In this document: positions 2,633 to 28,851 of the stretch, one piece after another
How positions within the stretch are numbered: the first letter of the stretch is position 1
How the letters are laid out: every line of letters starts with the position of its first letter
Origin: Bythopirellula goksoeyrii
Lineage (GTDB): Bacteria > Planctomycetota > Planctomycetia > Pirellulales > Lacipirellulaceae
Reading direction: 5' to 3'
Assembly: GCF_008065115.1 (NCBI RefSeq)
Contig: NZ_CP042913.1
Coordinates: 842,338-906,337, forward strand
Length of the DNA stretch: 64,000 bases
The notes under the pieces: generated by a model
Seen by the model: the letters and a program-made list of their open reading frames with translations, nothing else
What the model was told of the DNA's origin: nothing
Database searches by the model: none
Program-made: the position numbers and the translations under genes

Positions 2633-3928
2633 TTACTCTTTCGTAGCCCCTAGGTTTCGCCACCACCTGATTTCATTGGCACCATGCTCCGCGCTGCCAG
2701 CGATGTCGAGGAGCCCATCATTATCGAGATCCGCAATAATAACTGTATTCGCCATGGGCCACAGAGGCTTGATGACATGCATATTCCATTCACCTCTTGG
2801 ATCTCCGGTGTTCTCAAACCATGCCAGTCTGCCCTCCGCACTCCAACCTGTGGCAACAACATCGATATCGCCGTCATTATCCAGATCTCCTGCGACGGCT
2901 TCAAACCCTTGAGGAAATGATGGAGCAATGGTGTGTTTCTTCCAATCAGTTCCCAAACCCGGCGTACCAACATTTTCGTACCAGGAGACTTGATGTGACT
3001 CCGGTGATTGATTGCCCACTGCGGCAGCGATGCCAAAGGCCATGACTACATCGAGATCTCCATCGCCATCAAGATCAACAGGTTGCCCATGTGCTGGCGC
3101 GACCGTCTTGTCATCGATGATGTGTTTCTTCCACATTTCTTCTTTTGGCTGACCTGAGTTCTCGTACCAGAGAATCTTATTTCCTACTCGCGCACTTCCG
3201 AGCAGGTCCGGCATACCATCTCGGTTGAAATCGGCCACATCAATCGTTCGGGTTTCGCGAATATCTAAATCGACCTTGTGGCGCTTCCATTCGGCTCCTG
3301 TTCCTGCAGCGCCAACATTCTCAAACCAATCAAATCGATTGCCGAAACGCCAACTAGATGCCGCCACGTCAAGGTCGCCATCCTCGTCGATGTCGGCCAG
3401 AGCTACATCGTAGGAACCAGGTACTTCCATACGAGCCGAAACTCGGTGTAGTTTCCACGGCCACGCTATTTTCTCATTGCCTGGGTTCTCAAACCAACGG
3501 ATATCCCAGTTCATGTTGTCTACAATGACGATATCCAGTAGGCCATCTCTATTAATGTCTCCGATAGCGTGCCGCTCCATACGTGTTGGCTGATCTTCGT
3601 CGAGAGCGTATTTCTGGATGAACGAATGCTTGAAGCCACCGCTGCCATCGTTTAGTAGTAAGTAAAGGTTGCAATTGGGTTCGGCGTCTGCGCTGGTAAG
3701 ATCTAGAGATCCATCGCCGTTAAAATCAGCTGCTGCTATCCCATAGGCATAAGTGTAGTTATGGAGAAGCCGCTCTTCTTCGAAGGAAACGGGACCTGCC
3801 TTCACCGTTTTTGAAGGTTCAGGAGCAGCGGAGGGGATATCGGCATAAGCACCTTCTTTCGAGATTGAGGTCTCTACGAGAGCCAAGCCTAGCAATATGC
3901 CAATAATTCCTGATTTAAAAACTTGCAT
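2633..3928 (-). CDS. Exported FG-GAP/VCBS repeat protein
   Basis: 431 residues. An N-terminal signal peptide (hydrophobic IIGILLGLALVETS, then an Ala-rich cleavage region) is followed by seven calcium-binding FG-GAP/VCBS blades. Their signatures are DFNGDGSLDL, DINRDGLLDI, DIDEDGDLDV, DFNRDGMPDL, DLDGDGDLDV, DLDNDGDIDV and DLDNDGLLDI. Most blades are followed by a WFEN or WYEN motif. The fold is an integrin-like beta-propeller, normally extracytoplasmic and used for binding, so no catalytic activity is indicated. It lies 106 bp upstream of the dehydrogenase gene in the same direction and may belong to the same locus, though the two could be transcribed separately. Confidence 0.85.
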   Translation of the reverse strand: MQVFKSGIIGILLGLALVETSISKEGAYADIPSAAPEPSKTVKAGPVSFEEERLLHNYTYAYGIAAADFNGDGSLDLTSADAEPNCNLYLLLNDGSGGFKHSFIQKYALDEDQPTRMERHAIGDINRDGLLDIVIVDNMNWDIRWFENPGNEKIAWPWKLHRVSARMEVPGSYDVALADIDEDGDLDVAASSWRFGNRFDWFENVGAAGTGAEWKRHKVDLDIRETRTIDVADFNRDGMPDLLGSARVGNKILWYENSGQPKEEMWKKHIIDDKTVAPAHGQPVDLDGDGDLDVVMAFGIAAAVGNQSPESHQVSWYENVGTPGLGTDWKKHTIAPSFPQGFEAVAGDLDNDGDIDVVATGWSAEGRLAWFENTGDPRGEWNMHVIKPLWPMANTVIIADLDNDGLLDIAGSAEHGANEIRWWRNLGATKE

Positions 3929-4163
3929 GACGATTCTCTGCTGTGAATGTGGGAGACGTAGCTGTAAATGCAGGATGAAGCCAACCGAAAGAGTAAGGAA
4001 AACCAGGTACTTTGAGGCGATTCAAGCCTTTCCCATTCCTTCTGGAGACCGAGCAGCCAATGGATAACTGAGATTGAGACAACGTACGATTATACTATTA
4101 TCTTTTATGGTACCGACTATGTGGTTTCCGTCAAGTATTTCTTCCACTTCCAAACAGCATCCG

Positions 4164-4967
4164 CTAATCAGAGGAGCTTTTCGGGGCTCCACTCTTCACG
4201 CCCAGCTTGGCAAATCGATCGAGCAGCAAGGAGAGGCCGTTGCGAAGAACAATAATATCTGCGCCGCTGAAATAGAGACGGCAACCCAGGTTATTCAATT
4301 GATGAAAATGCTCATCGCTGAAAACGGGCATTCCCCATTGCTTTCCAGCACTTCGGGCTGCTTCACTTACTTGCTGCATTGCGTTCAGGATTTTGGGATG
4401 GGTAAATTCACCGGGAATATTTTCAAGAATGGAATAATCAGCAGGTCCCAGCATCAAGGCATCGATCCCTTCCACGGCAGCGATCTTAGGCGCTTCTTGT
4501 AAAGCCAGTTGGTCTTCCAATTGGATGATAATAAGTGTTTCGTTGTTGGCATGCTGAATATACTCCTTCATCGGATGTTTTGCGTAAGAAGCGTCAGGTC
4601 CAGCTCCATCAAACCCCCTTGTTCCTAGAGGAGCAAATTTTGCCCATCGAACGACTTCAGCTGCTTCTTCTGCGTTGGAACAGCGTGGGTACATAATTCC
4701 TTGAGCACCCGCTTCAAGTAGTCGCGACATCCTCATGAACTCACCCTTGGCAGGACGAGCGATTACGTCGGAATCGCCCACCCTTGAAGCAAGTATTAAA
4801 TGACTTGCCGTTTCGAGCGAGTGACCATGGTGTTCCAGATCCATCCACAGGCCGTCAAAGCCCATATCACTGGCCATTTCATAGACGGATGGGTCGTTCA
4901 GATGAAATTGAGTAATTAAAACGGACTCATCTCGAGCCAGCTTGGCTTTGATCGTGCTTGATCTCAT
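4164..4967 (-). CDS. HpcH/HpaI family aldolase
   Basis: 267 residues, the normal length for class II 2-keto-3-deoxy acid aldolases (HpaI, RhmA, GarL). Visible family signatures are GFDGLWMDLEHHGHS near residue 35, a metal-site QLED near 150 and the phosphate/pyruvate-loop-like LMLGPADYS near 170. The motif YPRCSNAEEA and GTRGFDG are also typical. Family members cleave 2-keto-3-deoxy sugar acids or 4-hydroxy-2-oxo acids to pyruvate plus an aldehyde using a divalent metal. Here it is grouped with an SDR, a Gfo/Idh/MocA enzyme and a DUF1080 protein, which suits an oxidative sugar-acid route. The actual substrate is not deducible. The 235 bp between this gene and the FG-GAP gene hold nothing recognisable. 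Confidence 0.85.
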   Translation of the reverse strand: MRSSTIKAKLARDESVLITQFHLNDPSVYEMASDMGFDGLWMDLEHHGHSLETASHLILASRVGDSDVIARPAKGEFMRMSRLLEAGAQGIMYPRCSNAEEAAEVVRWAKFAPLGTRGFDGAGPDASYAKHPMKEYIQHANNETLIIIQLEDQLALQEAPKIAAVEGIDALMLGPADYSILENIPGEFTHPKILNAMQQVSEAARSAGKQWGMPVFSDEHFHQLNNLGCRLYFSGADIIVLRNGLSLLLDRFAKLGVKSGAPKSSSD

Positions 4968-5079
4968 GCAAAAAGTTCCCTGAGCTTATTCGAAGTTAAA
5001 ACTAACGTCTATTGAAAGTGTGCAATCTCGGAAAACAGATTATTTGATTCTGCAATTGTTGAATCGTGATCGATTTTGG

Positions 5080-5895: not shown

Positions 5896-5920
5896 CGTAT
5901 TTTCCAAGTATTGAATTTCG

Positions 5921-6925: not shown

Positions 6926-6992
6926 CGCTTCTTATTCCGTCGCATGAGAGCAATTCGAGGTCTGGCACCCAATTTTGGCAAATGAGTTGATG

Positions 6993-7796: not shown

Positions 7797-7837
7797 GCCA
7801 TCATTCCATGCTTACGGGGATTCTCAATTGTTAGCAT

Positions 7838-7866
7838 TTGCAGGGGCTAGTCACTTGTGTTATTAT
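7838..7866 (+). promoter_or_regulatory. Candidate sigma70-like promoter in the divergent spacer
   Basis: In the 230-bp spacer between the two arms, TTGCAG (7838-7843) and TATTAT (7861-7866) are 17 bp apart and point toward the gene at 8027. The -10 is close to consensus and the -35 is weak. This is pattern matching only; planctomycete promoters are poorly characterised. Confidence 0.3.
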
Positions 7867-8026
7867 GTTCGATTATGGTGTATTCAAACGGAAAAGCAAG
7901 AGCTATTCCTTGGCTTGTAGGGAGGATTCTTCGCTATTTTCTATCTGCCACCGAAGAAAAATGTTAGCTTCCCAGTAGGGAACGCACTTTGATTCCAGTG
8001 ATACAACCACTTCAAAAGGAAGCATC

Positions 8027-9462: not shown

Positions 9463-10242
9463 ATGCCTAGGAGTTCCGCCCAAGGGAGCAAGCGTCGCAA
9501 TCAGTTGGCAAATCTGCTGAAGGCCCAAGAAAACGTCTCGACATCCGAATTGGCAAATCGCTTTCAAGTTAGCGAAATGACGATTCGCCGGGACTTGAAG
9601 CAGTTGCAAAATGAAGGGATTGCCTTGCCGTATTACGGAGGTGCGCTGGCGGCTCAACGTATTACGTTTGAATTTGAGTTCGATGTTTCACATCGGACGC
9701 ACTTGGCACAGAAAAAGCGTATCGCTCGGACAGCTGCCTCCCAGGTGAAGGCAAGGCAAACGCTTTTTCTGGATACAGGTACGACAACACTTGAATTGGC
9801 AAAATCGCTCGCCCAATCTGATGTCGAGATGACAGTGATCACGGCCAGTTTGGTTATCGCGAGTGAGCTTTGGGCGAGAGGAAACATTCGCTTGCAATTG
9901 CTGGGAGGACAGGTTCGAGGAGGGAATCCAGATTTAGCTGGGCCTCTCACGGAAATTATGCTGGAGCGATTAACAGCTGATGTCGCCTTCCTGGGAAGCG
10001 ACGGAGTCGATCCCGAACGAGGTAGTTTTGCCAGCGATGTTGAAACAGCTCGCATTGCTGAACGAATGGGCGCCTGCTCCAAGCAAACGATTGTCATTTG
10101 CGACAGTTCAAAGCTAGGGCGTACTGGAGCAGTTCGTTGCTTGAAGATCGATGAGATCGATATGCTGATCACAGATAAAGGTGCTAATGCCTCATTGGTG
10201 AGGCAACTAACAGACCGACGCGTCAAAGTGAAACGTGCTTAA
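9463..10242 (+). CDS. DeoR/GlpR-type transcriptional regulator
   Basis: 259 residues. The N-terminal winged helix-turn-helix (residues about 12-65) has STSELANRFQVSEMTIRRDLKQL, the PROSITE-like DeoR signature. The C-terminal sensor domain resembles sugar-phosphate isomerases, with LDTGTTTLELAKSL near residue 104, SDGVDPERG and the late SSKLGRTG. Proteins of this family are usually repressors released by a phosphorylated sugar intermediate. It stands directly in front of the aldolase-aminotransferase-NagB series (32-bp gap) and is the obvious candidate regulator of the plus arm. AGGG lies about 8 bp before the ATG. No operator could be identified by eye. Confidence 0.92.
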   Translation: MPRSSAQGSKRRNQLANLLKAQENVSTSELANRFQVSEMTIRRDLKQLQNEGIALPYYGGALAAQRITFEFEFDVSHRTHLAQKKRIARTAASQVKARQTLFLDTGTTTLELAKSLAQSDVEMTVITASLVIASELWARGNIRLQLLGGQVRGGNPDLAGPLTEIMLERLTADVAFLGSDGVDPERGSFASDVETARIAERMGACSKQTIVICDSSKLGRTGAVRCLKIDEIDMLITDKGANASLVRQLTDRRVKVKRA

Positions 10243-10274: not shown

Positions 10275-11084
10275 ATGGACGGACGTGAAATAAGATTGCA
10301 ACGACTCGTCGGCGAAGGACGCGCAGTCATCATTGCTTTTGACCATGGCTTATTCGACGGTCCCATCTCCGGACTCGAAGACCTCACGACAATTGAGAGG
10401 AAAATCAACTCAGTTGTGGACGCAGTTTTGTTGGCCCCAGGCATGATGCGTCGTTGTAGTGGAGTGTTTTCTCATCCAAAGCGTCCCTTGGCAATGGTTC
10501 GCTTGAACTGGAACACGGTATATTGCTTTAGATTCGGTTATCGAGAGGCAAAAAGCGTGCTTATGTTTTCACCCGAGGATGCATTGCGCGAAGGGATGGA
10601 CATCGCACTGGTCTCCTTGACATTGCAAACGGGTTGTGAAGAACGAGACGCCGCCAATGTGGAAGTATTTTCCAAGCTGACCAACGATTGCCATCGACTT
10701 GGCATTCCAGTGGTCGGCGAGTACTTTCCTACGGGGCACGTGGAGATGACGCCCGATCAATTGCACTCCGACGTTTTGGTGGGGAGCCGGATAGTTGCAG
10801 AACTGGGAGCTGATGCGATCAAGACTTTTAATACGTGTCGTTTTCAGGAAGTGACCTCTAGTTGCCCTGTCCCTGTATTTGGATTGGGAGCAGAAAAGTT
10901 GCCTACGCAACGAGAGGCATTGGAACTGGCGGAAGCAGAAGTTCAAGCTGGCGCGGGTGGGGTAGTTTTTGGTCGCAACGCGATTCAAGTGCCCAATCCC
11001 CAGGCATTTCAAGCGGCGTTGTGCGAAGTAGTCAAAGATTCAGTAAGGGTTAACGATGTCGTCAACAAGTACGATCTATCCTAG
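10275..11084 (+). CDS. DhnA/LacD-type class I aldolase, first of three
   Basis: 269 residues of a TIM-barrel class I aldolase related to FbaB, LsrF and archaeal ADH synthase. AFDHGLFDGP near residue 20 is the usual strand-1 motif. ELGADAIKTF near residue 180 holds the likely Schiff-base lysine, and the phosphate-binding end is GAGGVVFGRNAIQ. Such enzymes cleave or form sugar phosphates (fructose-1,6-bisphosphate, tagatose-1,6-bisphosphate, autoinducer-derived phosphates). The last 29 bp overlap the next gene, whose start has a good AAGGG ribosome site, implying translational coupling to the aminotransferase. The substrate is unknown, but the neighbourhood suggests a deoxy- or amino-sugar-derived phosphate. 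Confidence 0.85.
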   Translation: MDGREIRLQRLVGEGRAVIIAFDHGLFDGPISGLEDLTTIERKINSVVDAVLLAPGMMRRCSGVFSHPKRPLAMVRLNWNTVYCFRFGYREAKSVLMFSPEDALREGMDIALVSLTLQTGCEERDAANVEVFSKLTNDCHRLGIPVVGEYFPTGHVEMTPDQLHSDVLVGSRIVAELGADAIKTFNTCRFQEVTSSCPVPVFGLGAEKLPTQREALELAEAEVQAGAGGVVFGRNAIQVPNPQAFQAALCEVVKDSVRVNDVVNKYDLS

Positions 11085-12450
11085 TACCTACAAGTCCGAG
11101 TGGGCAGCTATCGACCCCAGTGAAACTCCACACGTGGTAGTTGCGCCCCCGGGACCGAAGTCCCAAGCCCTGCATGAGCGATGTACGAAATACTTCAAGG
11201 GGCTTAGCGGACAGGTCAAGTTGTTTCCCGTCGCATTCGAATCGGGCCAAGGGTGTGAGCTAACGGACGCTGATGGAAATCGGTACATCGATTTCTCCTC
11301 CGGTATCTATGTCACAACTCTAGGGCACTGCCATCCAAAGATCACCGAGGCGATCCAGAAGGCTTCAGCCACCCTGATGAACTGCCATGACTTTACGACA
11401 GAGATCAAGACACGCTTAGTCGAAAAACTCGCCGAAGTTCTACCAGGCGATCTCAACGGTTTTCAGTTCTACGATTCTGGTACAACAGCGGTTGAAGCTG
11501 GCCAGCGCGTTCTCCGGGCAGCCACCGGCAAACACGAGATGCTCTCCTGTTTTTACGACTATCATGGAAAAACTTATGGAGGAGTCTCATTGGGCCACAT
11601 AAGGTCCTCAGTATATGGACCGGTACGGGCACCAGGAATGCATATGGTCCCCAGACCCGATGCTTACCGTCCTATGTGGCTGAATGACGATGGATTGATC
11701 GACACCGACAAATATATTGAGTTCTATGACGAGTATATCGATAAGGGGACCGTCGGCGCGGTAGCAGGGTTCGTGCTGGAACCGATTCAAGGCTGGGGTG
11801 GCTCGATCATGCCGCCCGATGATTTCTTTCCCAAACTACGCACTTACTGTGACGAGCGTGGTATTCTGCTGATGGCCGATGAAGTGCTCACCAGCTGGGG
11901 GCGCACTGGGAAATGGCTTTGCATGGAACATTGGGATGTGGTGCCAGACATCGTTTCGATCGGCAAGGGATTCGGCAATGGATTCCCAGTGACCTGCGTG
12001 GCAGTTCGAGAACCTTATAAAGAGTCCTTTGAGGCGATTTCCGCTTCAAGCAGCTACGGAGGAAACCCGATGGCCTGTGCGGCGGCACTCGCCAGCACCG
12101 AAGTCATCGAAGAAGAGAATCTACTGGAGCGAGCCACCTATTTGGGAGAGCTTGCCCTAAACCGCATGGAAAAGATGAAAGCCGAACATGCGATTGTTGG
12201 CGATGTGAGAGCTAAGGGATGCCTGATGGGCATCGAACTTGTGAAGGACAAGGAGTCAAAAGAGCCCTTTAATGAGGCTGGAGCTCTCGTCTACCAAAAA
12301 GCCTTTCGCAAGGGCCTCGCGTGGATTCCGGCTGGACATATTCTTCGTATGAGCCCACCAATAGTAATGGACGATGCCGCCCTCCTCAAAGGGCTGGATA
12401 TCATCGATGAGGCCATCGGTGAGACTGAGCAAGAACTGGGATTCAATTAG
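11056..12450 (+). CDS. Class III (PLP-dependent) aminotransferase
   Basis: 464 residues, normal for the 4-aminobutyrate/acetylornithine/glutamate-semialdehyde family. GSGI-like residues near 72, YDSGTTAVEAGQRVLRAATG near 138, the PLP-ring DEVLTSWGRTGKW near 275 and the lysine in IVSIGKGFGNGFPV near 303 are all present, so it should be active. The start ATG overlaps the aldolase gene and is preceded by AAGGG at 11045-11049. Family members move an amino group between omega-amines and keto acids or aldehydes. In this cluster it could aminate or deaminate a sugar-derived aldehyde, or recycle an amino group released from an amino sugar. Confidence 0.9.
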   Translation: MSSTSTIYPSTYKSEWAAIDPSETPHVVVAPPGPKSQALHERCTKYFKGLSGQVKLFPVAFESGQGCELTDADGNRYIDFSSGIYVTTLGHCHPKITEAIQKASATLMNCHDFTTEIKTRLVEKLAEVLPGDLNGFQFYDSGTTAVEAGQRVLRAATGKHEMLSCFYDYHGKTYGGVSLGHIRSSVYGPVRAPGMHMVPRPDAYRPMWLNDDGLIDTDKYIEFYDEYIDKGTVGAVAGFVLEPIQGWGGSIMPPDDFFPKLRTYCDERGILLMADEVLTSWGRTGKWLCMEHWDVVPDIVSIGKGFGNGFPVTCVAVREPYKESFEAISASSSYGGNPMACAAALASTEVIEEENLLERATYLGELALNRMEKMKAEHAIVGDVRAKGCLMGIELVKDKESKEPFNEAGALVYQKAFRKGLAWIPAGHILRMSPPIVMDDAALLKGLDIIDEAIGETEQELGFN

Positions 12451-12480
12451 CCATCAGACAATAAATTGGGAGCACTAGGC

Positions 12481-17033: not shown

Positions 17034-17055
17034 AAACCTCTCAACATCCCTCACC

Positions 17056-17901: not shown

Positions 17902-17935
17902 AATGCGTAGCCATTCCAGTCACTTTGGGAAATAC

Positions 17936-19896: not shown

Positions 19897-20823
19897 ATGC
19901 CCCGTGCTATTAGTAAGGTGGCCCCCGAGTGGTGGGACTACACAACTCTAGATCTTGCGATACTCGAAGAGGCAGCCCGGCTCACTGCCGACGACTTGGT
20001 AGGACTCTCCCGTGAAGGATTCGAGGTCGTAATCTACGATACGCTGGAAGAATTCTTCTGTGCCGAGGCCCTGGAATACATCCAGGCTTGGCAGCAAGCA
20101 ACTCCCGACATTCCCGCAGGAATCTGCGGTCCGATAGGTCCCACCGAGCAACTCCCCTTAGTAGCCAAGATTGTCAATGCACTCGATCTCAAACTACACG
20201 ATGCCCACTTTTGGGGCATGGATGAGTGGATCGAGAACGGCAAACCCGTTTCCACCGATCACCCCCTCTCTTTTGCCAAGGCAGATATGGAGTTGTGCTT
20301 CAATCGGATTCGTCCAGAATTACTGATGCCGAAGGAAAATATCCACTTCCCCACGGACTTGGAAGCCTATTCCAAGAGCTATTACGAAGTCCGCTGTGTG
20401 TTAATGCAAGGAGGTCAAGGAGAGGTAAAGCATTGGGCTTTCAATGACCCTCCAAAGCGTGAAGGACCGTATCAGGATCAGCCACCTCCACCAGAAGAAT
20501 ATCGCAAGCTGGGAACTCGTATTACTGATCTGCATCCGATGACCGTCATTCAAAACGCCAGAACCTCGGGAGGGGGCTATGTCCCTCAGGTGCCAACATG
20601 TGCAGCCACTGTAGGTCCGACTGAAACATGGAAGGCCGAAACGGTCTCGATTTGGCATCCAGGCCATCACGACAATCCCTTTGGGATGCGCCTCACGGCG
20701 CTGATGATCAGTAAACAGATCCCTGACAGTTCGGTCCCCATGTCGTTGCTAGCCGACCATCCCCATGTCCGATTTAGCTACTATCGTGGTGGCATCGGAA
20801 CCGTCGAGACAGAAATGCATTAA
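19897..20823 (+). CDS. Divergent glucosamine-6-phosphate deaminase-like protein (NagB family), copy 2
   Basis: 308 residues, immediately following the deacetylase gene. It shares the general layout of copy 1: the conserved Asp in [11 protein letters not shown] near residue 110, [10 protein letters not shown] and a late [14 protein letters not shown]. The active-site loop reads [15 protein letters not shown] instead of GGVGxDGHIAFNEP. The His and an acidic residue are kept, but spacing is changed and the NagB Asp141 is not recognisable. It is clearly not a housekeeping NagB. It may deaminate or isomerise a different amino or keto sugar phosphate. The two copies may be subunits of one enzyme or catalyse different steps. 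Confidence 0.78.
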
Positions 20824-20872: not shown

Positions 20873-21742
20873 TTGGACAAATGGCCTATTGGCGTCTTCG
20901 CGAGTATCGACGAAGGACTGGGAGTCAATCTCGATGTCGCCCACGAATTAGGGGTAACCACCATCCATCTGCATGTGCCTAGCCTACGTTCACGGACTCC
21001 GGCAGCCATCAAATCCTTTCAGAATCGATTGCAGAAGCTAGGTTTGACAGTTACTGTAGTCTTCGCCGGTTTTGAAGGGGAGAGTTATGCCGACATCCCG
21101 ACAGTCCAGGAGACGATCGGGCTGGTCCCAGCTGCGACTCGTCAAGCGAGATTGGTAGAGTTGAAAGAGATCATCGACTTTACTCAGGCTCTTGGCGTAG
21201 ATGCAACAGGACTGCACATCGGTTTCGTACCCCACGACACGGAGGACGCTGAGTTCGCTGCCCTTCTGGAAACCACCTGTGAGGTTTGCGACTACGCTGC
21301 CGAAAAGGGCATCCATATTCACTTGGAAACGGGTCAAGAACCGGCGGACATACTCCTGGAATTTCTCAAGGCAGTTGATCGTCCGAACCTGTGGGTAAAT
21401 TTTGACCCGGCCAATATGATTCTGTACGGCTGCGGAGAACCGATTCCGGCACTAAAACAGGTTGGCAAGTATGTTCGCAGCGTGCACTGCAAAGATGCCC
21501 ATTGGTCGCCTCGTCCCGGCGAAACGTGGGGGCAAGAAATGCCTTTAGGAAAAGGAGCTGTCGATTTCGACGAGTATCTCAAGACACTCGACGCGGTTGG
21601 CTACACAGGGCCACTGACCATCGAGCGTGAAATCCCGCAAGACCCAGCCCGGCAGAAAGCCGAGATTGGTCAGGCAGTAGAATTGCTCGAACGACTCAAA
21701 CGTTCGAAGGTTGCCACCAAGCAGAGCGGAGTGGCATCATGA
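20873..21742 (+). CDS. Sugar phosphate isomerase/epimerase (xylose isomerase-like TIM barrel)
   Basis: 289 residues. The start is a TTG at 20,873 with a strong GGAGAA (20,861-20,866) 6 bp before it; no nearby ATG fits. AP-endonuclease-2 fold features are TTIHLHVPS near residue 32, GLHIGFVP near 118, IHLETGQE near 150, WVNFDPANM near 180, VHCKDAHW near 210 and a late Glu in LTIEREIP. These supply the usual Glu/His/Asp/Glu metal ligands. Such proteins isomerise or epimerise keto sugars, inosose-type compounds or 3-keto sugars. The stop overlaps the following Gfo/Idh/MocA gene by 4 bp (ATGA), indicating a coupled pair. Confidence 0.87.
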   Translation: MDKWPIGVFASIDEGLGVNLDVAHELGVTTIHLHVPSLRSRTPAAIKSFQNRLQKLGLTVTVVFAGFEGESYADIPTVQETIGLVPAATRQARLVELKEIIDFTQALGVDATGLHIGFVPHDTEDAEFAALLETTCEVCDYAAEKGIHIHLETGQEPADILLEFLKAVDRPNLWVNFDPANMILYGCGEPIPALKQVGKYVRSVHCKDAHWSPRPGETWGQEMPLGKGAVDFDEYLKTLDAVGYTGPLTIEREIPQDPARQKAEIGQAVELLERLKRSKVATKQSGVAS

Positions 21743-22767
21743 CGCGCGTTGGCTTCATGGGAATGGTGCACTATCTGAGCTATCAAAAAGTCCCTGGCGC
21801 TAAAGTGGTTGCCCTATGTGATGCCAACTCCAAACGCTTAGCAGGCGATTGGACCGACATCCAGGGAAACTTTGGCCCCGCTGGCGAGCAGATGGATCTG
21901 ACGGGGATCGCCACGTATGAGTCCTCGGACGAACTACTCGGCGACCCCAACATCGATCTGGTTGATATCACGCTTCCTCCCGCCGCACATGCGGGTGTAG
22001 CAATCGCAGCCCTCGAAAGTGGCAAGCATGTCTTCTGCGAAAAACCGATGGCGATGACCGTGGAGGACTGCGACCGAATGCTCGTCGCTGCAAAGAAAGC
22101 CGACAAGCAGCTCTTAATCGGACATGTATTGCCCTACTTCCCAGAATACGCTTGGGCCCTGCACGAAGTAACAAGCGGGAAGCACGGTCGCGTGCTGGGT
22201 GGATCTTTTAAGCGAGTTATTGCCGATCCTAGTTGGCTGGCGAATTACTGGTCGGCCGAGGCGGTTGGTGGCCCCATGCTCGACTTGCACGTGCATGACG
22301 CCCACTACATCCGCTTACTGTTTGGAATGCCTGAGGCTGTTACCACTTGGGGGCGTACGAGAAACGGTTTGGCAGCACATTGGCATACCAACTTCGACTA
22401 TGGTCCTCAGGGACCGGTTGTGCACGCAATGAGTGGGACTATCGACCAACAGGGACGAGCATTCAATCAAGCTTTTGAAATACAGCTGGAACATGCCACT
22501 TTGGTATTCGAGTTCGCTGTGATCGACGGAGAAGGAGTTACTCTTTGTCCGCCGACGATCTTTCGAGACGATTCTAAAGTCGAGCGTGTCCAACTGCCAG
22601 GCGGAGATCCGATGGATGCCTTTGCAGAAGAGATCCACAACGTTGTGCATAGTGTACAGGGCAGCGTGTTGGACCCTGTAGCTGATGGACATCTGGCTCG
22701 GGATGCAATTCACCTTTGTCAAAAGCAGACAGAGAGTCTCCATAGCCGCTGCCGAGTCGTGATTTAG
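21739..22767 (+). CDS. Gfo/Idh/MocA-family protein with a shortened nucleotide-binding loop
   Basis: 342 residues, ATG overlapping the preceding stop. The core is typical: EKP in KHVFCEKPMAMTVEDC near residue 98, GGPMLDLHVHDAHYIRLLFG near 175. The N-terminus, however, reads TRVGFMGMVHYLSYQKVPGAKVVALCD. Relatives normally have a GLG-type GxGxxG just before FMG, and here about five residues (15 bp) seem to be missing, between two GGC-like glycine codons. Dinucleotide binding may therefore be impaired, or the protein may have another role. Upstream in-frame sequence belongs to the previous gene, so an alternative start does not restore the motif. Confidence 0.85.
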   Translation: MTRVGFMGMVHYLSYQKVPGAKVVALCDANSKRLAGDWTDIQGNFGPAGEQMDLTGIATYESSDELLGDPNIDLVDITLPPAAHAGVAIAALESGKHVFCEKPMAMTVEDCDRMLVAAKKADKQLLIGHVLPYFPEYAWALHEVTSGKHGRVLGGSFKRVIADPSWLANYWSAEAVGGPMLDLHVHDAHYIRLLFGMPEAVTTWGRTRNGLAAHWHTNFDYGPQGPVVHAMSGTIDQQGRAFNQAFEIQLEHATLVFEFAVIDGEGVTLCPPTIFRDDSKVERVQLPGGDPMDAFAEEIHNVVHSVQGSVLDPVADGHLARDAIHLCQKQTESLHSRCRVVI

Positions 22768-22821
22768 GATTGAGCTGTTTACAAAACTTGACTTTAGGAA
22801 AAAGGTGCAATCGAGAACCTC

Positions 22822-23475
22822 ATGCAGCCACACTTTCAGAACCTTAGAAAGAAAAAGATCGTACTCATTGGCCCCCCAGGAGCGGGCAAGGGAACACAAG
22901 CGGTCCGCATCAGTGAACTACTCCAGATCCCCCATATCTCAACCGGCAACATGTTGCGTGAATTCGTCAAGACAAGTGAGCCTCCAGGAGCTCACCTGAA
23001 GTCTTGCCTAGAATCTGGACGACTGGTGCCAGATGAAACGATCGTGGAGATCGTCAATCAACGGCTGAGTCAAGAAGACTGTCGCGAGGGGTTCGTCTTG
23101 GATGGATTTCCCAGAACACTCCCTCAAGCGGAGATGTTAGACCTCATCCTAAAGCACAAGCATACTGAGCTGGATTGCTGCCTCTCTTTTTCCATTGACT
23201 TTGAAGAGGTGGTGAAACGAATCTATCACCGAAGCCAGTGTGAACTCCGCTCGGACGACACAGTAGAGATCGCTCAAGAGCGCATGAGACAATTTGACAG
23301 ATTAACTGCTCCACTACTGGAGTACTATCGAGAGCAAGGCAAGATCCTGGAAGTCTCTAGCATAGGTTCTGTCGATGAGGTTTTTACTGAGATAGCGGAC
23401 TTGTTGGGAAACCGCCAGCAGCCGACTTTTAACACTCCTAAGCCAAGCCATTCTCAAAAACTTTCCAAATGCTAA
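22822..23475 (+). CDS. Short adenylate kinase-like nucleoside/nucleotide kinase lacking the LID domain
   Basis: 217 residues. The P-loop GPPGAGKGTQA is near residue 15. ISTGNMLREF and LDGFPRTLPQAE follow, as in adenylate kinase. Where long Adk has the roughly 30-residue LID (often with zinc cysteines), this protein passes from VVKRIYHRSQCELRSDDT straight on, so it is a short form. Its place inside a sugar-catabolic series, not near ribosomal genes, suggests a dedicated role: recycling AMP from a neighbouring reaction or phosphorylating another small molecule. Housekeeping Adk is expected elsewhere in the genome. Start ATG at 22,822; gaps are 54 bp before and 64 bp after. Confidence 0.82.
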   Translation: MQPHFQNLRKKKIVLIGPPGAGKGTQAVRISELLQIPHISTGNMLREFVKTSEPPGAHLKSCLESGRLVPDETIVEIVNQRLSQEDCREGFVLDGFPRTLPQAEMLDLILKHKHTELDCCLSFSIDFEEVVKRIYHRSQCELRSDDTVEIAQERMRQFDRLTAPLLEYYREQGKILEVSSIGSVDEVFTEIADLLGNRQQPTFNTPKPSHSQKLSKC

Positions 23476-23539
23476 AGACTTTACCCATAGCTATGTCTAT
23501 ACCTCTTTCACGCTTCATGTCTATCCAAATCGCTCTACT

Positions 23540-24601
23540 ATGAAAAAAACACTTGATGAGAAACTTTCTCGTATCCTCGGAGAACCTGCCTGCCAGGATT
23601 TTATCCTGGCGGATGCCAAGGATGCGGATATGGCCTTTGGAATCGCCGCGCCGGGCCGTCGTAATCCACAGAATGGACAGACGGAGTATCGTTCGCTTGC
23701 GGAGTTCCACGAAACAATCTGCGAGATTGTTGAACAAGGACTCGTCGATGTCATGCTGATGAGCGTCAATACGAACGCTCGTCTGACGATCAATAAACGT
23801 CTCTTTGAGGGAAGTAGTGTTACACCAGCCATCCGTGCCAACGACACGACCGATATCTGGCTGGCAGGGGGAGTGGGAGCATACGGATCGCAACCCTCAC
23901 TCCCATTTCGCTCAGCAACGATCGATCAGGCAATGTGTGGCCACGAGAATTGCACGCCTGACGAGCGTCATATAGGAGCTGACCTGGGACTCTATTCGAT
24001 CACCTTTAATAACGACGCCACGCTGGACCGCGCGGCTTTAGCTGCCTATCGAGAGTTTCGTATTGAAGCGGAGGCAAAGGGATTTCGCCATTTTCTGGAG
24101 GTGTTTGCGCCAAATGCCTGTGAGAACTTGGCTGTAGAAGATGTCCCCCGGTTTATCAATGATTCGATCGTCCGCACCCTGGCCGGAGTCCCTCCTAGTT
24201 CACGGCCAAAGTTTCTCAAAATCCCCTATTTTGGCCCGGCACCGATGGAGGAACTCGTGGCGTACGATTCTTCTCTGGTCGTCGGAATCCTCGGTGGCTC
24301 TGCGGGGACGACGTTTGATGCGTTTCATCAGCTGTGGGAGGCAAAGAAATCTGGTGCTCGTGTGGCCCTCTATGGCCGCATGATCAACAACTCCGAGCAT
24401 CAACTCTCGTTTATTGAGCACCTCCGCTATTTGGCAGATGGACAACTCAATGATCCGGCAGAAGCGGTGCGGTCCTACCACGGGGCGCTCCACAAACTAG
24501 ACATCGAACCCTTTTGTAGCTTGGAAGAGGACTTGCAATCGACCAAGCGGTGCTCCGATTACTCAAGCAAGAAAAAACCTAGCGGAAGAATCCTCGCATG
24601 A
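23540..24601 (+). CDS. Predicted beta/alpha-barrel aldolase-like protein, third of the set
   Basis: 353 residues, no confident named family by eye. The layout matches the two DhnA-like aldolases: a possible Schiff-base lysine in FLKIPYFGPAPMEELV near residue 230, then a glycine-rich phosphate site in VGILGGSAGTTFDAF and GARVALYGRMIN. Middle motifs are MCGHENCTPDERHIGADLG and FRHFLEVFAPN. This order (Lys strand, GG, then GR) is that of class I aldolases such as LacD. It overlaps the PfkB gene by 4 bp (ATGA). A tagatose-bisphosphate-like pairing of sugar-phosphate kinase with aldolase is an attractive reading, but unproven. Confidence 0.7.
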   Translation: MKKTLDEKLSRILGEPACQDFILADAKDADMAFGIAAPGRRNPQNGQTEYRSLAEFHETICEIVEQGLVDVMLMSVNTNARLTINKRLFEGSSVTPAIRANDTTDIWLAGGVGAYGSQPSLPFRSATIDQAMCGHENCTPDERHIGADLGLYSITFNNDATLDRAALAAYREFRIEAEAKGFRHFLEVFAPNACENLAVEDVPRFINDSIVRTLAGVPPSSRPKFLKIPYFGPAPMEELVAYDSSLVVGILGGSAGTTFDAFHQLWEAKKSGARVALYGRMINNSEHQLSFIEHLRYLADGQLNDPAEAVRSYHGALHKLDIEPFCSLEEDLQSTKRCSDYSSKKKPSGRILA

Positions 24602-25815
24602 AGGCGTCTGAAACCAATGCTCCTGAAGTTGTCGTCGCTGGGCATGTTTGCTTGGACATTATTCCAAGTTTTCTGCAAGACACCTCGGTAGCAAGCAGCC
24701 AGATTGAGCCTGGCAAACTAAAAGTGATGGGCCCTGCGGCATGTGTCACGGGGGGGTGTGTTGCTAACACCGGGCTAACGCTCCATCAGCTTGGAGTTAG
24801 AACTTCTTTGATGGGCAAGATTGGCGATGATCCTTTCGGTGATCAGATCCTTGGCATTGTGAAGAAAGCGGATGCTTCGCTCGCTGAGAGCATGATTGTT
24901 GCACCTGGTGAGCACTCCAGTTATTCCATTGTGATTAGCCCGCCTGGGGTGGATCGTTCCTTTCTGCATTTTCCGGGGGCCAACGATACTTTTTCTGCAG
25001 GCGATGTCCCCCTAGAGCAACTCAACCAATGCAAACTGTTTCATTTTGGCTATCCGCCACTCATGAAGTGCTTTTGGAATGACGGCGGCTCTGCGATGGC
25101 AGGACTGCTTCGCAGTGTAAAAGAAAAGGGAGCTATGACCTCGCTCGACATGGCGATGCCTGATCCTACAGCTCCAGCGGGTAAGATCGACTGGAAGCCT
25201 TGGCTGGAGCAGGTGCTGCCACATGTTGATTTGTTTATGCCAAGCTTGGATGAGATTCTATTCATGCTCGACCCCAAACAATACACCAATAAAACGCCAG
25301 GAGAAGTGTTCGACAGCGATCTTCTGTCCAAGACTGCCGATCAGCTGATTTCACTTGGCGCGGGTATTGTCGTACTTAAACTTGGCACGCATGGTCTCTA
25401 CCTGAAGAGTTCCTCAGCTGTGGATAGGATATCGCGGGGATTCTATCCCGGAAAAAACAGCCTAGAAGCCTGGGTGGGACGCGAGCTGTACACTCCCTGT
25501 TTTGAGGTACCTGTTGTCTCCACCAATGGAGCAGGAGATCGCACGATTGCCGGATTCTTGGCTGCCGTGGTTCAAGACGCCAGTCCGACTGAGGCACTCC
25601 AGATGGCCGTTGGGGTCGGGGCGACGAGCGTTGCGGCTAGCGATTTCTCTGAGGCGGATTTCTCTTGGGAGTCAATAAAGAGACGAGTCGATGCCGGCTG
25701 GAATCATCAGCCTGTTGAAAACGCAGTTAGGGAAGATTTCAGAAGTGATGAGTCGGGATGTTGGAGAGGCAAGCAAGACAAGGCGACTGTGAGAAAACTG
25801 ACCACTGCCACATAA
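24598..25815 (+). CDS. PfkB-family carbohydrate kinase
   Basis: 405 residues, longer than typical (about 310), with extra sequence at the C-terminus. PfkB features are the N-terminal VVAGHVCLDIIP, the GG motif GGCVANTGLTLHQLG near residue 58, VDLFMPSLDEILFML near 215 and the catalytic anion hole NGAGDRTIAGFLA near 310. It transfers phosphate from ATP to a sugar, sugar phosphate or nucleoside. Its ATG overlaps the stop of the aldolase-like gene, so both are translated together. That resembles LacC-LacD-like kinase/aldolase pairs, which act on tagatose-6-phosphate and its bisphosphate. Confidence 0.88.
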   Translation: MKASETNAPEVVVAGHVCLDIIPSFLQDTSVASSQIEPGKLKVMGPAACVTGGCVANTGLTLHQLGVRTSLMGKIGDDPFGDQILGIVKKADASLAESMIVAPGEHSSYSIVISPPGVDRSFLHFPGANDTFSAGDVPLEQLNQCKLFHFGYPPLMKCFWNDGGSAMAGLLRSVKEKGAMTSLDMAMPDPTAPAGKIDWKPWLEQVLPHVDLFMPSLDEILFMLDPKQYTNKTPGEVFDSDLLSKTADQLISLGAGIVVLKLGTHGLYLKSSSAVDRISRGFYPGKNSLEAWVGRELYTPCFEVPVVSTNGAGDRTIAGFLAAVVQDASPTEALQMAVGVGATSVAASDFSEADFSWESIKRRVDAGWNHQPVENAVREDFRSDESGCWRGKQDKATVRKLTTAT

Positions 25816-25931: not shown

Positions 25932-27422
25932 ATGACCCTGTCTGATACGATTGACTCCACTCAAGTTCTCAAATCACTCGCCGACTCCGCTCCCAAAGCC
26001 TACATCGGTGGAAAGTGGGTGGAGGCGGAGGATGGCTCGACCCTGGTGACTCGTGATCCTGGCACGGGAGACGCAATTGCCGAAGTGCCAGCTATGGGAA
26101 CTTTGGACGTTGACAGGGCTGTCTTAGCCGCCCAAGAGGCTTTTGACCATTCTGGGTGGGCCACTTTGTCACCACAAGAACGTGGGGTCCTGTTGCATCG
26201 ATTCGCTGATCGGATCGAGCGCGAAAAATCAATTCTTGCTCAGATCGAGTCGCTTGATGCAGGCAAGGTCCTCTCTCAAGCGGAATCAGATGTTCAGAAT
26301 CTGGTGGATACACTCCGCTATTTCATTGAAATTTCGTTGCATGTGCCGAACCGTACCCCTCTGGCGGTGAGCGGATATGAAGCTGCTACGGTTCGTACTC
26401 CCTGGGGGCCATGTGGATTCATTATTCCCTGGAACTTCCCACTGCTACTGATCGGCTGGAATATCGCCCCCGCCTTGGCGGCAGGCAACACGGTCGTGAT
26501 AAAGCCTGCAGAAGACACTTCCCTTTCGGCGCTGTATTTGGCCAAGCTCTCGCAAGAGGCGGGCATCCCCGCTGGGGTCTTTAATGTCGTTACGGGCAAT
26601 GGTGCCAGTGCGGGAGCCGCTCTAGCAGCTCACCCAGGCCTAAAGCGGTTGGCCTTTACAGGGTCAACGGAAGTCGGACGGAATGTAGCCGCCGTCTGTG
26701 GAAAAAACCTGGTCCCCGCCAAATTGGAACTAGGTGGAAAAGGTGCGGCAGTCGTGTTTGACGACGTGGATATCGAAGCCACTGCCGAAAAACTTGTCGG
26801 TGCAATAACCTTCCATTCTGGCCAAGTCTGCTGTGATGCGACGCGTTGGCTTGTGCACAAGCCGATTTATGATCGGTTCGTGGATTGCTGCGTGGATCGA
26901 TTGCGGCAGACAAAAATTGGTTACCAGCTCGATGAAGCAACTCAAATGGGACCCGTGGTGAGTTCCAAACAGAAAGAACGCATCCTAGGTTACTTGCAGA
27001 AGGCTGTTTCCACAGGAGCCGAGGCTGTCCTCAAGGGAGGTGAGGCATCCGTAGATGGGAAAAATGGCTTCTACGTCGATCCTGCCCTTTTGGCCGGAAC
27101 TCTAGACAATGTTGCAGCGCAGGAAGAGATTTTTGGCCCGGTTGCCTTTCTAGCACCCTTCACCGACGAAGCTCAAGCAATCGCCATGGCGAATGAAACT
27201 GTCTATGGCTTGGCCAATAGTGTCTGGACTACCGATTTGACGCGTGCCCAACGAGTGGCCCAGCAGATGATCGCTGGCAATAGCTGGATCAATGCCCACA
27301 ACCTGTTTCCTCACGGGGTTCCATACGGCGGCGTGAATGCCAGTGGGATGGGTGGAGGCGTGCTTTCTGTGGAGACTTTTCTGGAGTACCAGAGGTCTTG
27401 CTCTATTGTGCGGCCACTTTAG
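25932..27422 (+). CDS. NAD(P)-dependent aldehyde dehydrogenase
   Basis: 496 residues, full length for the superfamily. FIIPWNFPLLL near residue 158, the cofactor motif FTGSTEVGR near 240, the general-base Glu in KLELGGKGAAVVFDD near 263 and the nucleophile region HSGQVCCDATRW near 295 with two adjacent Cys are intact, as is EEIFGPV near 395. It oxidises an aldehyde to an acid. In this cluster it could take up the aldehyde released by one of the aldolases. It is separated by 116 bp from the PfkB gene but keeps the same direction. Confidence 0.92.
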   Translation: MTLSDTIDSTQVLKSLADSAPKAYIGGKWVEAEDGSTLVTRDPGTGDAIAEVPAMGTLDVDRAVLAAQEAFDHSGWATLSPQERGVLLHRFADRIEREKSILAQIESLDAGKVLSQAESDVQNLVDTLRYFIEISLHVPNRTPLAVSGYEAATVRTPWGPCGFIIPWNFPLLLIGWNIAPALAAGNTVVIKPAEDTSLSALYLAKLSQEAGIPAGVFNVVTGNGASAGAALAAHPGLKRLAFTGSTEVGRNVAAVCGKNLVPAKLELGGKGAAVVFDDVDIEATAEKLVGAITFHSGQVCCDATRWLVHKPIYDRFVDCCVDRLRQTKIGYQLDEATQMGPVVSSKQKERILGYLQKAVSTGAEAVLKGGEASVDGKNGFYVDPALLAGTLDNVAAQEEIFGPVAFLAPFTDEAQAIAMANETVYGLANSVWTTDLTRAQRVAQQMIAGNSWINAHNLFPHGVPYGGVNASGMGGGVLSVETFLEYQRSCSIVRPL

Positions 27423-27456
27423 AGTGATCTTACCAACTTTACTATGAAATGATGCG

Positions 27457-28851
27457 ATGCAACATATCTTGACCTCTACGATGGTGTTTCTAGTTGTCTC
27501 ATTAGCTGGACAGTTTACGACCGCAGCAGAAGTTGCCACCGTAGCACCTCCTCAGTCAGTCATTGAGAAACCATCCAATCCCCTCCAAGATTATCTGGCC
27601 AAAGAGGATTCCAGCTATCAATGGCACAAAGTACGTGAAGGCGAATTTGCCGGAGTGAAATACGTTGAATTAATTCTCACCTCGCAAACCTGGCACGAGA
27701 TTGTGTGGAAACATCGACTATTCATTATCAAGCCCAACGAAGTATCAGAAGTTAAACAAGCACTTCTGATCGTAGCGGGTGGCAAGTGGAAAGAGGAATT
27801 TTCTGACCCTTCTTACGAGGGGTCGCTACCCAAGGAAGCGATTCTGTTTGCGACTTTGGCAGAGCAGCTGGAGTCTCCAATTGCGGTGCTACTTCAAGTT
27901 CCTCAACAACCGATCTTTGAAGGTATGGTAGAAGATGAAATCATCTCTTATACGTTTGAACAATACCTTGATACGGGCGATCCTGAGTGGCCCTTGCTCT
28001 TACCCATGGTGAAGAGTGCTGTACGTGGAATGGATGCCGTTCAAGTATTCTGTAGAGACCAATGGGACCTCTCTATCAAATCATTCACGGTTACGGGAGG
28101 GTCCAAGCGAGGTTGGACCACTTGGCTGACAGGAGCTACCGACCCACGTGTGACAGCTATCGCTCCGATAGTAATCGATATGCTCAATCTGAAACTCCAG
28201 ATGGAACACCAGCAAGAAGCCTATGGAGAATTATCAACACAAATTCACGACTACACTGACCGGAATATCCCAGCACGAATGGACAGTGTCGCTGGTGAAG
28301 CGCTCCTGCGAATTGTCGATCCGCTGGCATACCGAGATTCGCTACAACAACCTAAGCTGATTATTCTCGGCACGAATGATCCCTATTGGACACTCGATTC
28401 ACTCAACTTGTACTGGTCCCAACTCCTAGGTCCAAAGTACATCCTTTACGTGCCTAACAATGGCCATGGAATCATAGACTTCCCACGGGTATTAGGGGGA
28501 GTATCCGCTTTGCACGAGCAAGCCAAAGAAGGTGACAAGCTGCCCGAATTGTCCTGGTCCTTTAAGAAGCGGGGCGACAAAGTGGTCCTTTCTATCAAGT
28601 CTGACACTCTCCCTACCCAATGCCATGTTTGGAGTGCCAACTCGAAGACTAGGGATTTTCGCGAGGCATCGTGGACTGCCACAGAAGTTTCTCGTGGAGG
28701 TGAGGGCTATACGTATGAGGCACCGATTCCCGAAAAAGGGTTTAAGGCCTTCTTCGGAGAAGTTCAGTATGCTCGCGAACAATTGCCACTCTATCTTTCG
28801 ACGAACGTACACATCTTTCCTCCTCAGATAATGACTCCACAGCACAAATGA
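27457..28851 (+). CDS. Exported PhoPQ-activated pathogenicity-related (PqaA-like) protein
   Basis: 464 residues. A signal peptide (MVFLVVSLAGQFTTAAE, residues about 9-25) precedes an alpha/beta-hydrolase-like domain. VTGGSKRGWTTWLTGATDPRV near residue 212 contains the probable Ser nucleophile, IIDMLNL-like text follows, and LIILGTNDPYWTLDSLNLYW near 300 carries the Asp. The late VPNNGHGIID would supply the His. The family is named for Salmonella PqaA but is common in planctomycetes with unknown enzymatic role; an esterase or peptidase is likely. It closes the plus arm and may process an extracellular substrate for the pathway. Confidence 0.85.
   Translation: MQHILTSTMVFLVVSLAGQFTTAAEVATVAPPQSVIEKPSNPLQDYLAKEDSSYQWHKVREGEFAGVKYVELILTSQTWHEIVWKHRLFIIKPNEVSEVKQALLIVAGGKWKEEFSDPSYEGSLPKEAILFATLAEQLESPIAVLLQVPQQPIFEGMVEDEIISYTFEQYLDTGDPEWPLLLPMVKSAVRGMDAVQVFCRDQWDLSIKSFTVTGGSKRGWTTWLTGATDPRVTAIAPIVIDMLNLKLQMEHQQEAYGELSTQIHDYTDRNIPARMDSVAGEALLRIVDPLAYRDSLQQPKLIILGTNDPYWTLDSLNLYWSQLLGPKYILYVPNNGHGIIDFPRVLGGVSALHEQAKEGDKLPELSWSFKKRGDKVVLSIKSDTLPTQCHVWSANSKTRDFREASWTATEVSRGGEGYTYEAPIPEKGFKAFFGEVQYAREQLPLYLSTNVHIFPPQIMTPQHK

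What the first reader, a model, noticed from the sequence alone, without database searches (positions are those of the whole stretch)
2633..28851. Large divergent locus for degradation of an unidentified (amino) sugar or polyol
Seen: about 24 genes in two divergent arms with very short gaps and several 4-bp or longer overlaps in the plus arm. It combines Gfo/Idh/MocA enzymes, DUF1080, SDR, HpcH aldolase, DeoR regulator, three class I aldolases, aminotransferase, two NagB-like proteins, PIG-L deacetylase, two amidohydrolases, FGGY and PfkB kinases, GlpX, an Adk-like kinase and ALDH. Known: each family acts on sugars or their phosphates, and DUF1080 with Gfo/Idh/MocA is linked to 3-keto-glycosides. 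Inferred: an outside step oxidises and cleaves a glycoside, then inside steps deacetylate, deaminate, phosphorylate and cleave it. The combination does not match any textbook pathway I know.
Basis: partly seen in the sequence, partly recalled or inferred. Interest (0 to 1): 0.8.

Follow-up and report, generated by a model that had tools for sequence, protein, structure and literature searches.

The report
Composite amino-sugar breakdown locus, substrate unknown
A run of sugar-processing genes in a planctomycete is built from two or three gene sets that also occur elsewhere, one of them shared across the planctomycete–verrucomicrobia group, and it most likely breaks down an N-acetylated amino sugar by a route whose early enzymes seem to have lost the usual grip on a sugar phosphate.

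Summary
Comparative genomics partly supports the single-pathway idea and sharpens it: the plus arm is a mosaic of modules that recur independently. Module A: a class III aminotransferase (AT3) travels with a DeoR regulator, NagB-type proteins, NagA-like and ceramidase-like deacylases, FGGY kinases and a class I aldolase in the 80 loci examined (best 80 of 218, 76-90% identity). Nine families of these loci, at 35% identity or more, are absent from 37 control loci. Module B: PIG-L deacetylase, a second NagB-like protein, a Pfam-less probable aldolase, a PfkB kinase. Module C: aldolase, isomerase, FGGY kinase, amidohydrolase. Module A's NagB- and NagA-like proteins keep most catalytic residues but lack residues tied to 6-phosphate binding; module B's NagB keeps some. 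My reading: breakdown of an N-acetylated amino sugar, one branch unphosphorylated at first (perhaps 6-deoxy), the other phosphorylated, both ending in aldolase cleavage. The substrate is unknown. DUF1080, TAT-type Gfo, FG-GAP and PhoPQ-related genes show no conserved linkage here. New variant of a known kind.

The parts
2633..3928 (-). FG-GAP repeat protein; no conserved linkage seen
   Evidence: no neighbourhood support
4164..4967 (-). HpcH/HpaI-type aldolase (minus arm)
   Evidence: relative (31%) beside SDR-Gfo-NagB in L225
5080..5928 (-). SDR dehydrogenase, best NCBIfam score gluconate 5-dehydrogenase, below cut-off (minus arm)
   Evidence: L176/L225, L178
5921..6925 (-). Gfo/Idh/MocA dehydrogenase (minus arm)
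   Evidence: 50-57% relatives in L204, L206, L225, L230
6993..7796 (-). DUF1080 / 3-keto-disaccharide hydrolase
   Evidence: one of 21 matches in the genome
8027..9361 (+). Gfo/Idh/MocA protein with TAT-like N-terminus (signal judged by eye); linkage not conserved
   Evidence: sequence
9463..10242 (+). DeoR-family regulator (module A)
   Evidence: DeoR relatives in 57 of 80 AT3 loci, directly upstream of AT3 in 46 of 80
10275..11084 (+). Ald1, class I DeoC/LacD/DhnA-type aldolase (module C)
   Evidence: with FGGY and AmdB in 9 of 16 examined loci
11056..12450 (+). AT3, class III PLP aminotransferase, marker of module A
12466..13434 (+). NagB1, NagB-fold protein lacking residues tied to the 6-phosphate site (module A)
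13460..14488 (+). AmdA, Amidohydro_2 (metal hydrolase, possibly a sugar lactonase)
   Evidence: 33-35% relatives next to or one gene from NagB in L215, L240, L244
14504..15949 (+). FGGY ketose-type kinase (module C)
15963..17033 (+). AmdB, Amidohydro_2 (module C)
17056..17901 (+). Ald2, class I DeoC/LacD/DhnA-type aldolase, Lys of the GADxIK motif kept (module A)
   Evidence: directly downstream of AT3 in 14 of 80 loci; Schiff-base role of the Lys is recalled
17882..19015 (+). GlpX class II fructose-bisphosphatase, second copy in the genome
19132..19896 (+). PIG-L N-deacetylase (module B)
19897..20823 (+). NagB2, NagB-like protein with part of the phosphate site kept (module B); 92% paralogue at C1:2236046
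20873..21742 (+). xylose-isomerase-like TIM barrel (isomerase/epimerase-like)
21739..22767 (+). Gfo/Idh/MocA dehydrogenase
22822..23475 (+). adenylate kinase, extra copy
23540..24601 (+). Unk353, probable class I aldolase of a new sequence family (module B; also near AT3 in 5 of 80 loci)
24598..25815 (+). PfkB-family sugar kinase (module B)
25932..27422 (+). aldehyde dehydrogenase, substrate unresolved
27457..28851 (+). PhoPQ_related protein; linkage not conserved
   Evidence: no support

Best explanation
The plus arm (about 9463-25815, perhaps to ALDH) is a composite catabolic operon for one or more N-acetylated amino sugars, made by joining modules that occur separately elsewhere. Proposed flow, all steps inferred: (1) an imported N-acetyl amino sugar is N-deacetylated (PIG-L here; a NagA-like or ceramidase-like deacylase in the related loci). 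(2) NagB1 opens and isomerises or deaminates the unphosphorylated amino sugar; AT3 removes an amino group to 2-oxoglutarate, with glutamate dehydrogenase recycling the glutamate in some relatives. (3) The ketose is phosphorylated once by the FGGY kinase and cleaved by Ald1/Ald2 to a triose phosphate and an aldehyde, as in fucose or rhamnose breakdown. (4) In a second branch NagB2, which keeps part of a phosphate site, feeds a ketose 6-phosphate to PfkB and the Unk353 aldolase, as in the tagatose/galactosamine route. (5) ALDH oxidises the aldehyde; the extra GlpX returns triose phosphates to hexose. DeoR is the local regulator. The changed 6-phosphate residues in both NagB- and NagA-like proteins of the related loci would fit a 6-deoxy amino sugar, but plain late phosphorylation fits equally.
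For: AT3 relatives are 76-90% identical in the 80 loci kept of 218 found. Of these 80 loci: ceramidase-like 59, DeoR 57, Gfo type-4 46, NagB 44, FGGY type-9 32, NagA-like 31, Ald2 14, glutamate dehydrogenase 9, Unk353 5, Ald1 5 (family names from one member each, or from window proteins). Control: 0 of 37 loci, 35 of them with NagB2, hold any of nine of these families at 35% identity over 60% length. Module C: Ald1+FGGY+AmdB together in 9 of 16 loci with AmdB at 51% or more, FGGY+AmdB only in 2, neither at a good level in 5. Module B: PIG-L with NagB2 in 21 of 37 loci (13 at 65-85%, 8 at 36-39%), Unk353 with NagB2 in 7 distinct loci of 6 genomes, PfkB too in 6 of these; in Adhaeretor canonical-looking NagB and NagA-type genes (by eye) precede it. 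Residues: all 46 NagB relatives keep the Asp72 and His143 equivalents; none has Arg at the 172 equivalent or Asp at 141; the TGG of the phosphate loop is missing. NagA-like: the motif could be read in 25 of 31; 23 have Asp for the phosphate-contacting Asn, 24 lack the REPG Arg (3 have Lys), 1 is ambiguous. In mycobacterial NagA that Asn contacts the phosphate, mutation of the conserved Arg kills activity, and GlcNAc is not a substrate (PMC6016474, passages).
Against: The window lacks the NagA-like, ceramidase-like and type-9 FGGY genes typical of AT3 loci, so its substrate may differ. No enzyme consistently marks the substrate: 98 of 301 unlabelled neighbouring ORFs gave no Pfam family in more than 4. 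If NagB1 deaminates, the role of AT3 is unclear, and the reverse. The Asp141 equivalent, part of the classical active site by recall, is lost too. AT3's closest solved relatives include amino-acid racemases/epimerases. In one mycobacterial NagA structure the conserved Arg points away from the ligand and its neighbour makes the contact. NagB phosphate residues are recalled, not read. No expression or enzyme data.
Confidence: 0.5

Rival explanations
1. Oxidative sugar-acid route: Gfo/SDR enzymes oxidise an amino sugar at C1, the Amidohydro_2 proteins open the lactone, AT3 transaminates the alpha-amino acid (such as a glucosaminate), a dehydratase and the HpcH aldolase finish the job.
For: AT3's nearest solved relatives include alpha-amino acid racemases/epimerases; glutamate dehydrogenase lies directly downstream of AT3 in 9 of 80 loci; a Gfo gene is present in 53 of the 66 AT3 loci without Ald2; HpcH, SDR and Gfo share the minus arm, and an enolase-superfamily gene scoring best as arabinonate/galactonate dehydratase (below cut-off) lies on the same strand beyond the window.
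Against: Does not need NagB, FGGY kinases or three class I aldolases; the dehydratase-like gene is about 9 kb from HpcH with other genes between.
Confidence: 0.2
2. A gene-rich sugar island: separate small pathways that merely lie side by side and are not one route.
For: Modules A, B and C occur apart; DUF1080, FG-GAP, TAT-type Gfo and PhoPQ genes show no linkage; integrase and tRNA-Arg beside the locus.
Against: Near-continuous plus arm with overlaps; NagB-AT3, NagB-AmdA, AT3-Ald2, AT3-Ald1 and AT3-Unk353 links recur in other phyla or classes; Adhaeretor has modules A and C joined.
Confidence: 0.2
3. Catabolism of a nonulosonic (sialic-like) acid: HpcH splits off pyruvate and the diamino hexose left over is handled by two deacylases, NagB and AT3.
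For: HpcH-SDR-Gfo with a second aminotransferase next to NagB in L225; NagA-like and ceramidase-like deacylases in the same AT3 loci; a sialidase-looking gene (by eye) near a related SDR-Gfo cluster in L178.
Against: HpcH is not of the NanA family by Pfam; none of the 24 genes matched a sialidase, NanE or NanK family; an HpcH relative is labelled in 1 of 80 AT3 loci.
Confidence: 0.1

Closest known systems
NagA/NagB N-acetylglucosamine pathway
   Same: NagB fold, catalytic Asp72/His143 equivalents; NagA-like deacetylase in related loci; DeoR or GntR regulators
   Different: Residues tied to phosphate binding changed in NagB1 and in the NagA-like family, PIG-L in place of NagA here, FGGY kinase plus aldolases, an aminotransferase added
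Aga/tagatose pathway for N-acetylgalactosamine
   Same: deacetylase, deaminase/isomerase-type step, kinase, ketose-bisphosphate aldolase type, DeoR-family regulator (AgaR score 169.6, cut-off 260); pathway content recalled
   Different: No phosphotransferase gene among the 24; NagB2 and Unk353 reach no NCBIfam cut-off
L-fucose/L-rhamnose isomerase - FGGY kinase - aldolase pathway
   Same: module C relatives carry an arabinose-isomerase-like protein, FGGY kinase and aldolase in a row (L168, L170, L201)
   Different: Aldolase is class I DhnA-type; in the window the isomerase is absent and NagB1 and AmdA lie there
3-keto-glycoside (DUF1080 with dehydrogenase) pathway
   Same: one DUF1080 and Gfo genes present
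   Different: DUF1080 is not a recurrent neighbour of this locus; 21 matches in the genome

Membership tests
NagA/NagB GlcNAc-6-phosphate pathway | NagB fold and catalytic His | tested here: met
   NagB1:
NagA/NagB GlcNAc-6-phosphate pathway | 6-phosphate-binding residues in NagB (NagB1) | tested here: not met
   TGG of the loop missing; Arg172 equivalent Leu/Met in 46 of 46 relatives and Leu in the window; residue roles recalled
NagA/NagB GlcNAc-6-phosphate pathway | phosphate-linked Asn and conserved Arg in NagA | tested here: not met
   related loci only, motif read in 25 of 31. The window has no NagA
NagA/NagB GlcNAc-6-phosphate pathway | NCBIfam nagB equivalog cut-off | tested here: not met
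   NagB1 55.6 bits, NagB2 16.8, cut-off 236.9
Aga/tagatose pathway | PfkB kinase and ketose-bisphosphate aldolase beside a deacetylase and deaminase | tested here: inconclusive
   module B order PIG-L-NagB2-Unk353-PfkB in L065 and L066; activities untested
Isomerase-FGGY-aldolase pathway | isomerase, FGGY kinase and aldolase in one operon | tested here: inconclusive
   seen in relatives L168, L170, L201 (isomerase family from L214); no such isomerase in the window
myo-inositol (iol) pathway | IolG/IolE/IolC equivalog cut-offs, IolD present | tested here: not met
   only sub-cut-off iolG, iolE, iolC scores; no IolD-type domain in the Pfam tables of the 24
3-keto-glycoside pathway | conserved DUF1080 + dehydrogenase unit with this locus | tested here: not met
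   DUF1080 not among recurrent neighbours of AT3
Any of the above | enzyme activity on the named substrate | not testable with these tools
   no experiment possible

The most novel reading that the evidence does not exclude
The AT3 locus is an undescribed amino-sugar pathway spread over the planctomycete-verrucomicrobia group in which deacetylation, ring opening and nitrogen removal happen before any phosphorylation, probably on a 6-deoxy or diamino N-acetyl sugar of microbial or algal surface glycans; the window joins it to a second, phosphorylated amino-sugar branch.
Probability: 0.35. Interest if true: 0.8.

Novelty: new variant of a known kind. Interest (0 to 1): 0.58.

Why it matters
Bacterial surface glycans hold many deoxy and diamino sugars for which, as far as I recall, few breakdown routes are known. 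A highly conserved, patchily spread operon with NagA- and NagB-like proteins that seem to have lost the phosphate grip gives a concrete, testable entry point, with few proteins to express and clear predictions on phosphorylation state. It also gives candidate functions to proteins without a family name (Unk353 as a class I aldolase, the AT3 family) that recur in uncultured genomes.

Tried and rejected
myo-inositol catabolism: considered because of sub-cut-off iolG/E/C scores and a DeoR regulator; rejected, no such equivalog reaches its cut-off. Sole housekeeping role for Adk and GlpX: each has another copy in the genome, so these are extra copies; what they do here is open. tRNA-linked island: integrase and tRNA-Arg lie beside the locus and G+C is lower on average than in the right half, but no repeat of the tRNA end was found in the window and 14 kb to its left, and the one other genome match of its 23-base end has 2 mismatches and lies 2.8 Mb away, so not claimed. 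Unk353 also occurs in 20 of 294 genomes of the phylum, own included; I did not examine those neighbourhoods.

Paper searches aimed at the locus or its substrate listed no paper that describes it as far as titles and abstract starts show; that covers one open-access library only. Searches looked for residue roles and DUF1080. I read passages, not whole texts, of PMC6016474, PMC9812318, PMC4008608 and PMC9007349. The Unk353 model has low confidence, so its fold match is a lead.

Limits of the counts. The 80 AT3 loci are the best 80 of 218; many are cut by contig ends, so counts are lower bounds; clusters of antisense frames were set aside by eye. Sequences are related and the Fisher test is not corrected for that. 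The 37 control loci are narrower in taxonomy than the cases. Two of them, L091 and L107, show no NagB2 hit. Several share a genome or contig (L065/L066, L068/L105/L106, L071/L107, L081/L082, L084/L085, L090/L091). L093 and L095, fetched for NagB1-like hits and holding AT3, and the 3-kb L094 were left out of the control. A 30% AT3-like hit in L100 is below the threshold used.


Full report
Observation. The 24 genes exist as described: five on the minus strand (2633-7796) and nineteen on plus (8027-28851). The plus arm is tightly packed. The two NagB-like calls and the third aldolase, made by eye, hold up with different strength: NagB1 strongly, NagB2 through its relation to NagB1, the 353-residue protein mainly through a low-confidence model whose 50 listed PDB matches (of 63 at E <= 0.001) are aldolases, ADH synthase or LsrF; by sequence the link is weak.

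The window lies in a 6.47 Mb single-contig genome. The AT3 relative nearest to it among named records is in Adhaeretor mobilis HG15A2 (L180), whose record has the same length as contig 1 of handle G322.

Modules. NagB1 searched over 294 genomes of the phylum matched 54 at E <= 1e-10, but only two other genomes at 50% identity or more (G322 was not in that sample). NagB2 is common near home (36 of 59 genomes, own included). Regions around them show that the window is a mosaic. Module B is PIG-L next to NagB2 (21 of 37 loci: 13 at 65-85%, 8 at 36-39%), with Unk353 in seven distinct loci from six genomes and PfkB in six of these. A 92%-identical NagB2 with PIG-L and Unk353 sits elsewhere in the same genome. 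In Adhaeretor the module is preceded by a canonical-looking NagB and a NagA-type gene, named by eye, which supports an amino-sugar role.

Module C is Ald1, FGGY kinase and AmdB. AmdB relatives at 51% or more occur in 17 of 396 genomes of the order, the window's included. Of the 16 other loci examined, nine have Ald1, FGGY and AmdB, two have FGGY and AmdB (L171, L172), and five show neither at a good level (L161, L162, L166, L173, L174). In L168, L170 and L201 an arabinose-isomerase-like protein lies between Ald1 and FGGY (family named from L214): an isomerase, kinase, aldolase set as in fucose or rhamnose breakdown. In the window NagB1 and AmdA lie there instead, along with AT3.

Module A is marked by AT3. 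A scan of named genomes found 218 relatives; the best 80, at 76-90% identity, were examined. By record title they come from Planctomycetota, Verrucomicrobiota, Kiritimatiellae, Lentisphaerae, Hydrogenedentota and a few bins with other names. Neighbour clustering gives, of 80 loci: ceramidase-like 59, DeoR 57, Gfo type-4 46, NagB 44, FGGY type-9 32, NagA-like 31, Ald2 14, GntR 13, Gfo type-22 10, glutamate dehydrogenase 9, and Ald1, Unk353 and the arabinose-isomerase-like protein 5 each. After an overlap filter a few counts fall by one or two. Nine families, tested at 35% identity over 60% length, are absent from 37 control loci, 35 of them with NagB2; that control is taxonomically narrower than the cases. 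On the same strand directly after AT3 come Gfo type-4 in 27, Ald2 in 14, Gfo type-22 in 9 and glutamate dehydrogenase in 9 of 80. A Gfo of these types is present in 2 of 14 loci with Ald2 and 53 of 66 without (Fisher p 5e-6, uncorrected for relatedness), as if Ald2 and Gfo were alternatives. AmdA relatives (33-35%) lie next to NagB, in order AmdA-NagB, in L215, L240 and L244. So links of AT3 with NagB, AmdA, Ald1, Ald2 or Unk353 are found outside this genus, and Adhaeretor holds modules A and C together. AT3 is nevertheless patchy: 9 of 97 genomes, own included, one at only 58%. In five further genomes of the family that I looked at, four AT3 loci have two or more of ceramidase-like, NagA-like, FGGY type-9 and DeoR, and the 58% one (L263) has none.

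Minus arm. On the same strand left of the window lie an enolase-superfamily sugar-acid-dehydratase-like gene and a 2-hydroxyacid dehydrogenase, with other genes between. This arm may be a sugar-acid route. DUF1080 proteins are proposed or known to cleave 3-keto-glycosides (PMC9007349, passages), but the genome has 21 matches and DUF1080 is not a recurrent neighbour of AT3.

Active sites. In 46 NagB relatives of the AT3 loci the Asp72 and His143 equivalents never vary, Glu148 is Glu in 40 and Asp in 6, the Asp141 equivalent is never Asp (Thr in 42), and the Arg172 equivalent is Leu or Met in all. The window's NagB1 has Cys and Leu at the last two. The alignment to solved NagB shows that the TGG (TGS) of the phosphate loop is missing. 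That Thr43, Arg172 and Lys208 hold the phosphate is recalled; a search for those residues listed no paper, and only the catalytic role of His143 with Glu148 was read (PMC4008608, passages). The 16 aligned NagB2 sequences all keep a Thr in that loop and an Arg at the 172 equivalent; Lys208 was not assessed. For the NagA-like family the source is better: in mycobacterial NagA the Asn-212 side chain contacts the phosphate; the conserved Arg is thought to help hold it and its mutation abolishes activity, although in one structure it points away and a neighbouring Arg makes the contact; GlcNAc is not a substrate (PMC6016474, passages). I map that Arg to the REPG motif by counting residues. In the 25 of 31 sequences where the motif could be read, 23 have Asp for that Asn, and 24 lack the Arg (Lys in 3), with one unclear (alignment). 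I count this as good but indirect evidence that the AT3 loci start on a sugar without 6-phosphate.

Mechanism. The likeliest reading is an amino-sugar catabolic operon with an unphosphorylated branch (deacetylation, NagB1/AT3, FGGY kinase, Ald1/Ald2) and a phosphorylated branch (PIG-L, NagB2, PfkB, Unk353), with ALDH, an extra GlpX and an extra adenylate kinase as auxiliaries. Shown: gene content, conserved linkage, residue changes. Inferred: every reaction, their order, the substrate. A 6-deoxy sugar such as N-acetylfucosamine or N-acetylquinovosamine, or a diamino sugar such as bacillosamine, would explain the changed phosphate site and the two proteins that could remove nitrogen, but nothing here proves it.

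Novelty. Of the 21 genes scanned against NCBIfam (all but FG-GAP, DUF1080 and the TAT-type Gfo), only GlpX and adenylate kinase pass a curated cut-off in the listed rows (the lists for AT3, ALDH and SDR are capped at 25). Five library searches listed no description of the AT3 locus. I file it as a new variant of amino-sugar catabolism.

Noticed in passing
31149-32345 (-) and 32543-32617 (-): A phage-type integrase gene lies beside tRNA-Arg(TCG), right of the locus; G+C is 0.475-0.52 over 1-32 kb and 0.51-0.57 over 32-64 kb. No repeat of the tRNA end was found.
   Followed up: partly
L265:7954-9186 and 6934-7950 (left of the window, minus strand): Enolase-superfamily sugar-acid-dehydratase-like gene and a D-2-hydroxyacid dehydrogenase on the same strand as the minus arm.
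   Followed up: partly
G000:C1:2236046-2236963 (L064): A second PIG-L - NagB2 - Unk353 set in the same genome, NagB2 92% identical, with a DUF1080 match just before it.
   Followed up: partly
L065 and L066: Adhaeretor carries two copies of a canonical-looking NagB - NagA-type - PIG-L - NagB2 - Unk353 - PfkB set; in the comparison the NagB and NagA-type genes match at 100%. In L065 Unk353 and PfkB share one 763-residue frame.
   Followed up: no
whole genome: 21 DUF1080 matches in one genome.
   Followed up: no
L225, L178: A second class III aminotransferase (GSA-type by eye) lies with SDR and Gfo genes near AmdB-like amidohydrolases; L178 also has a sialidase-looking gene (by eye).
   Followed up: no
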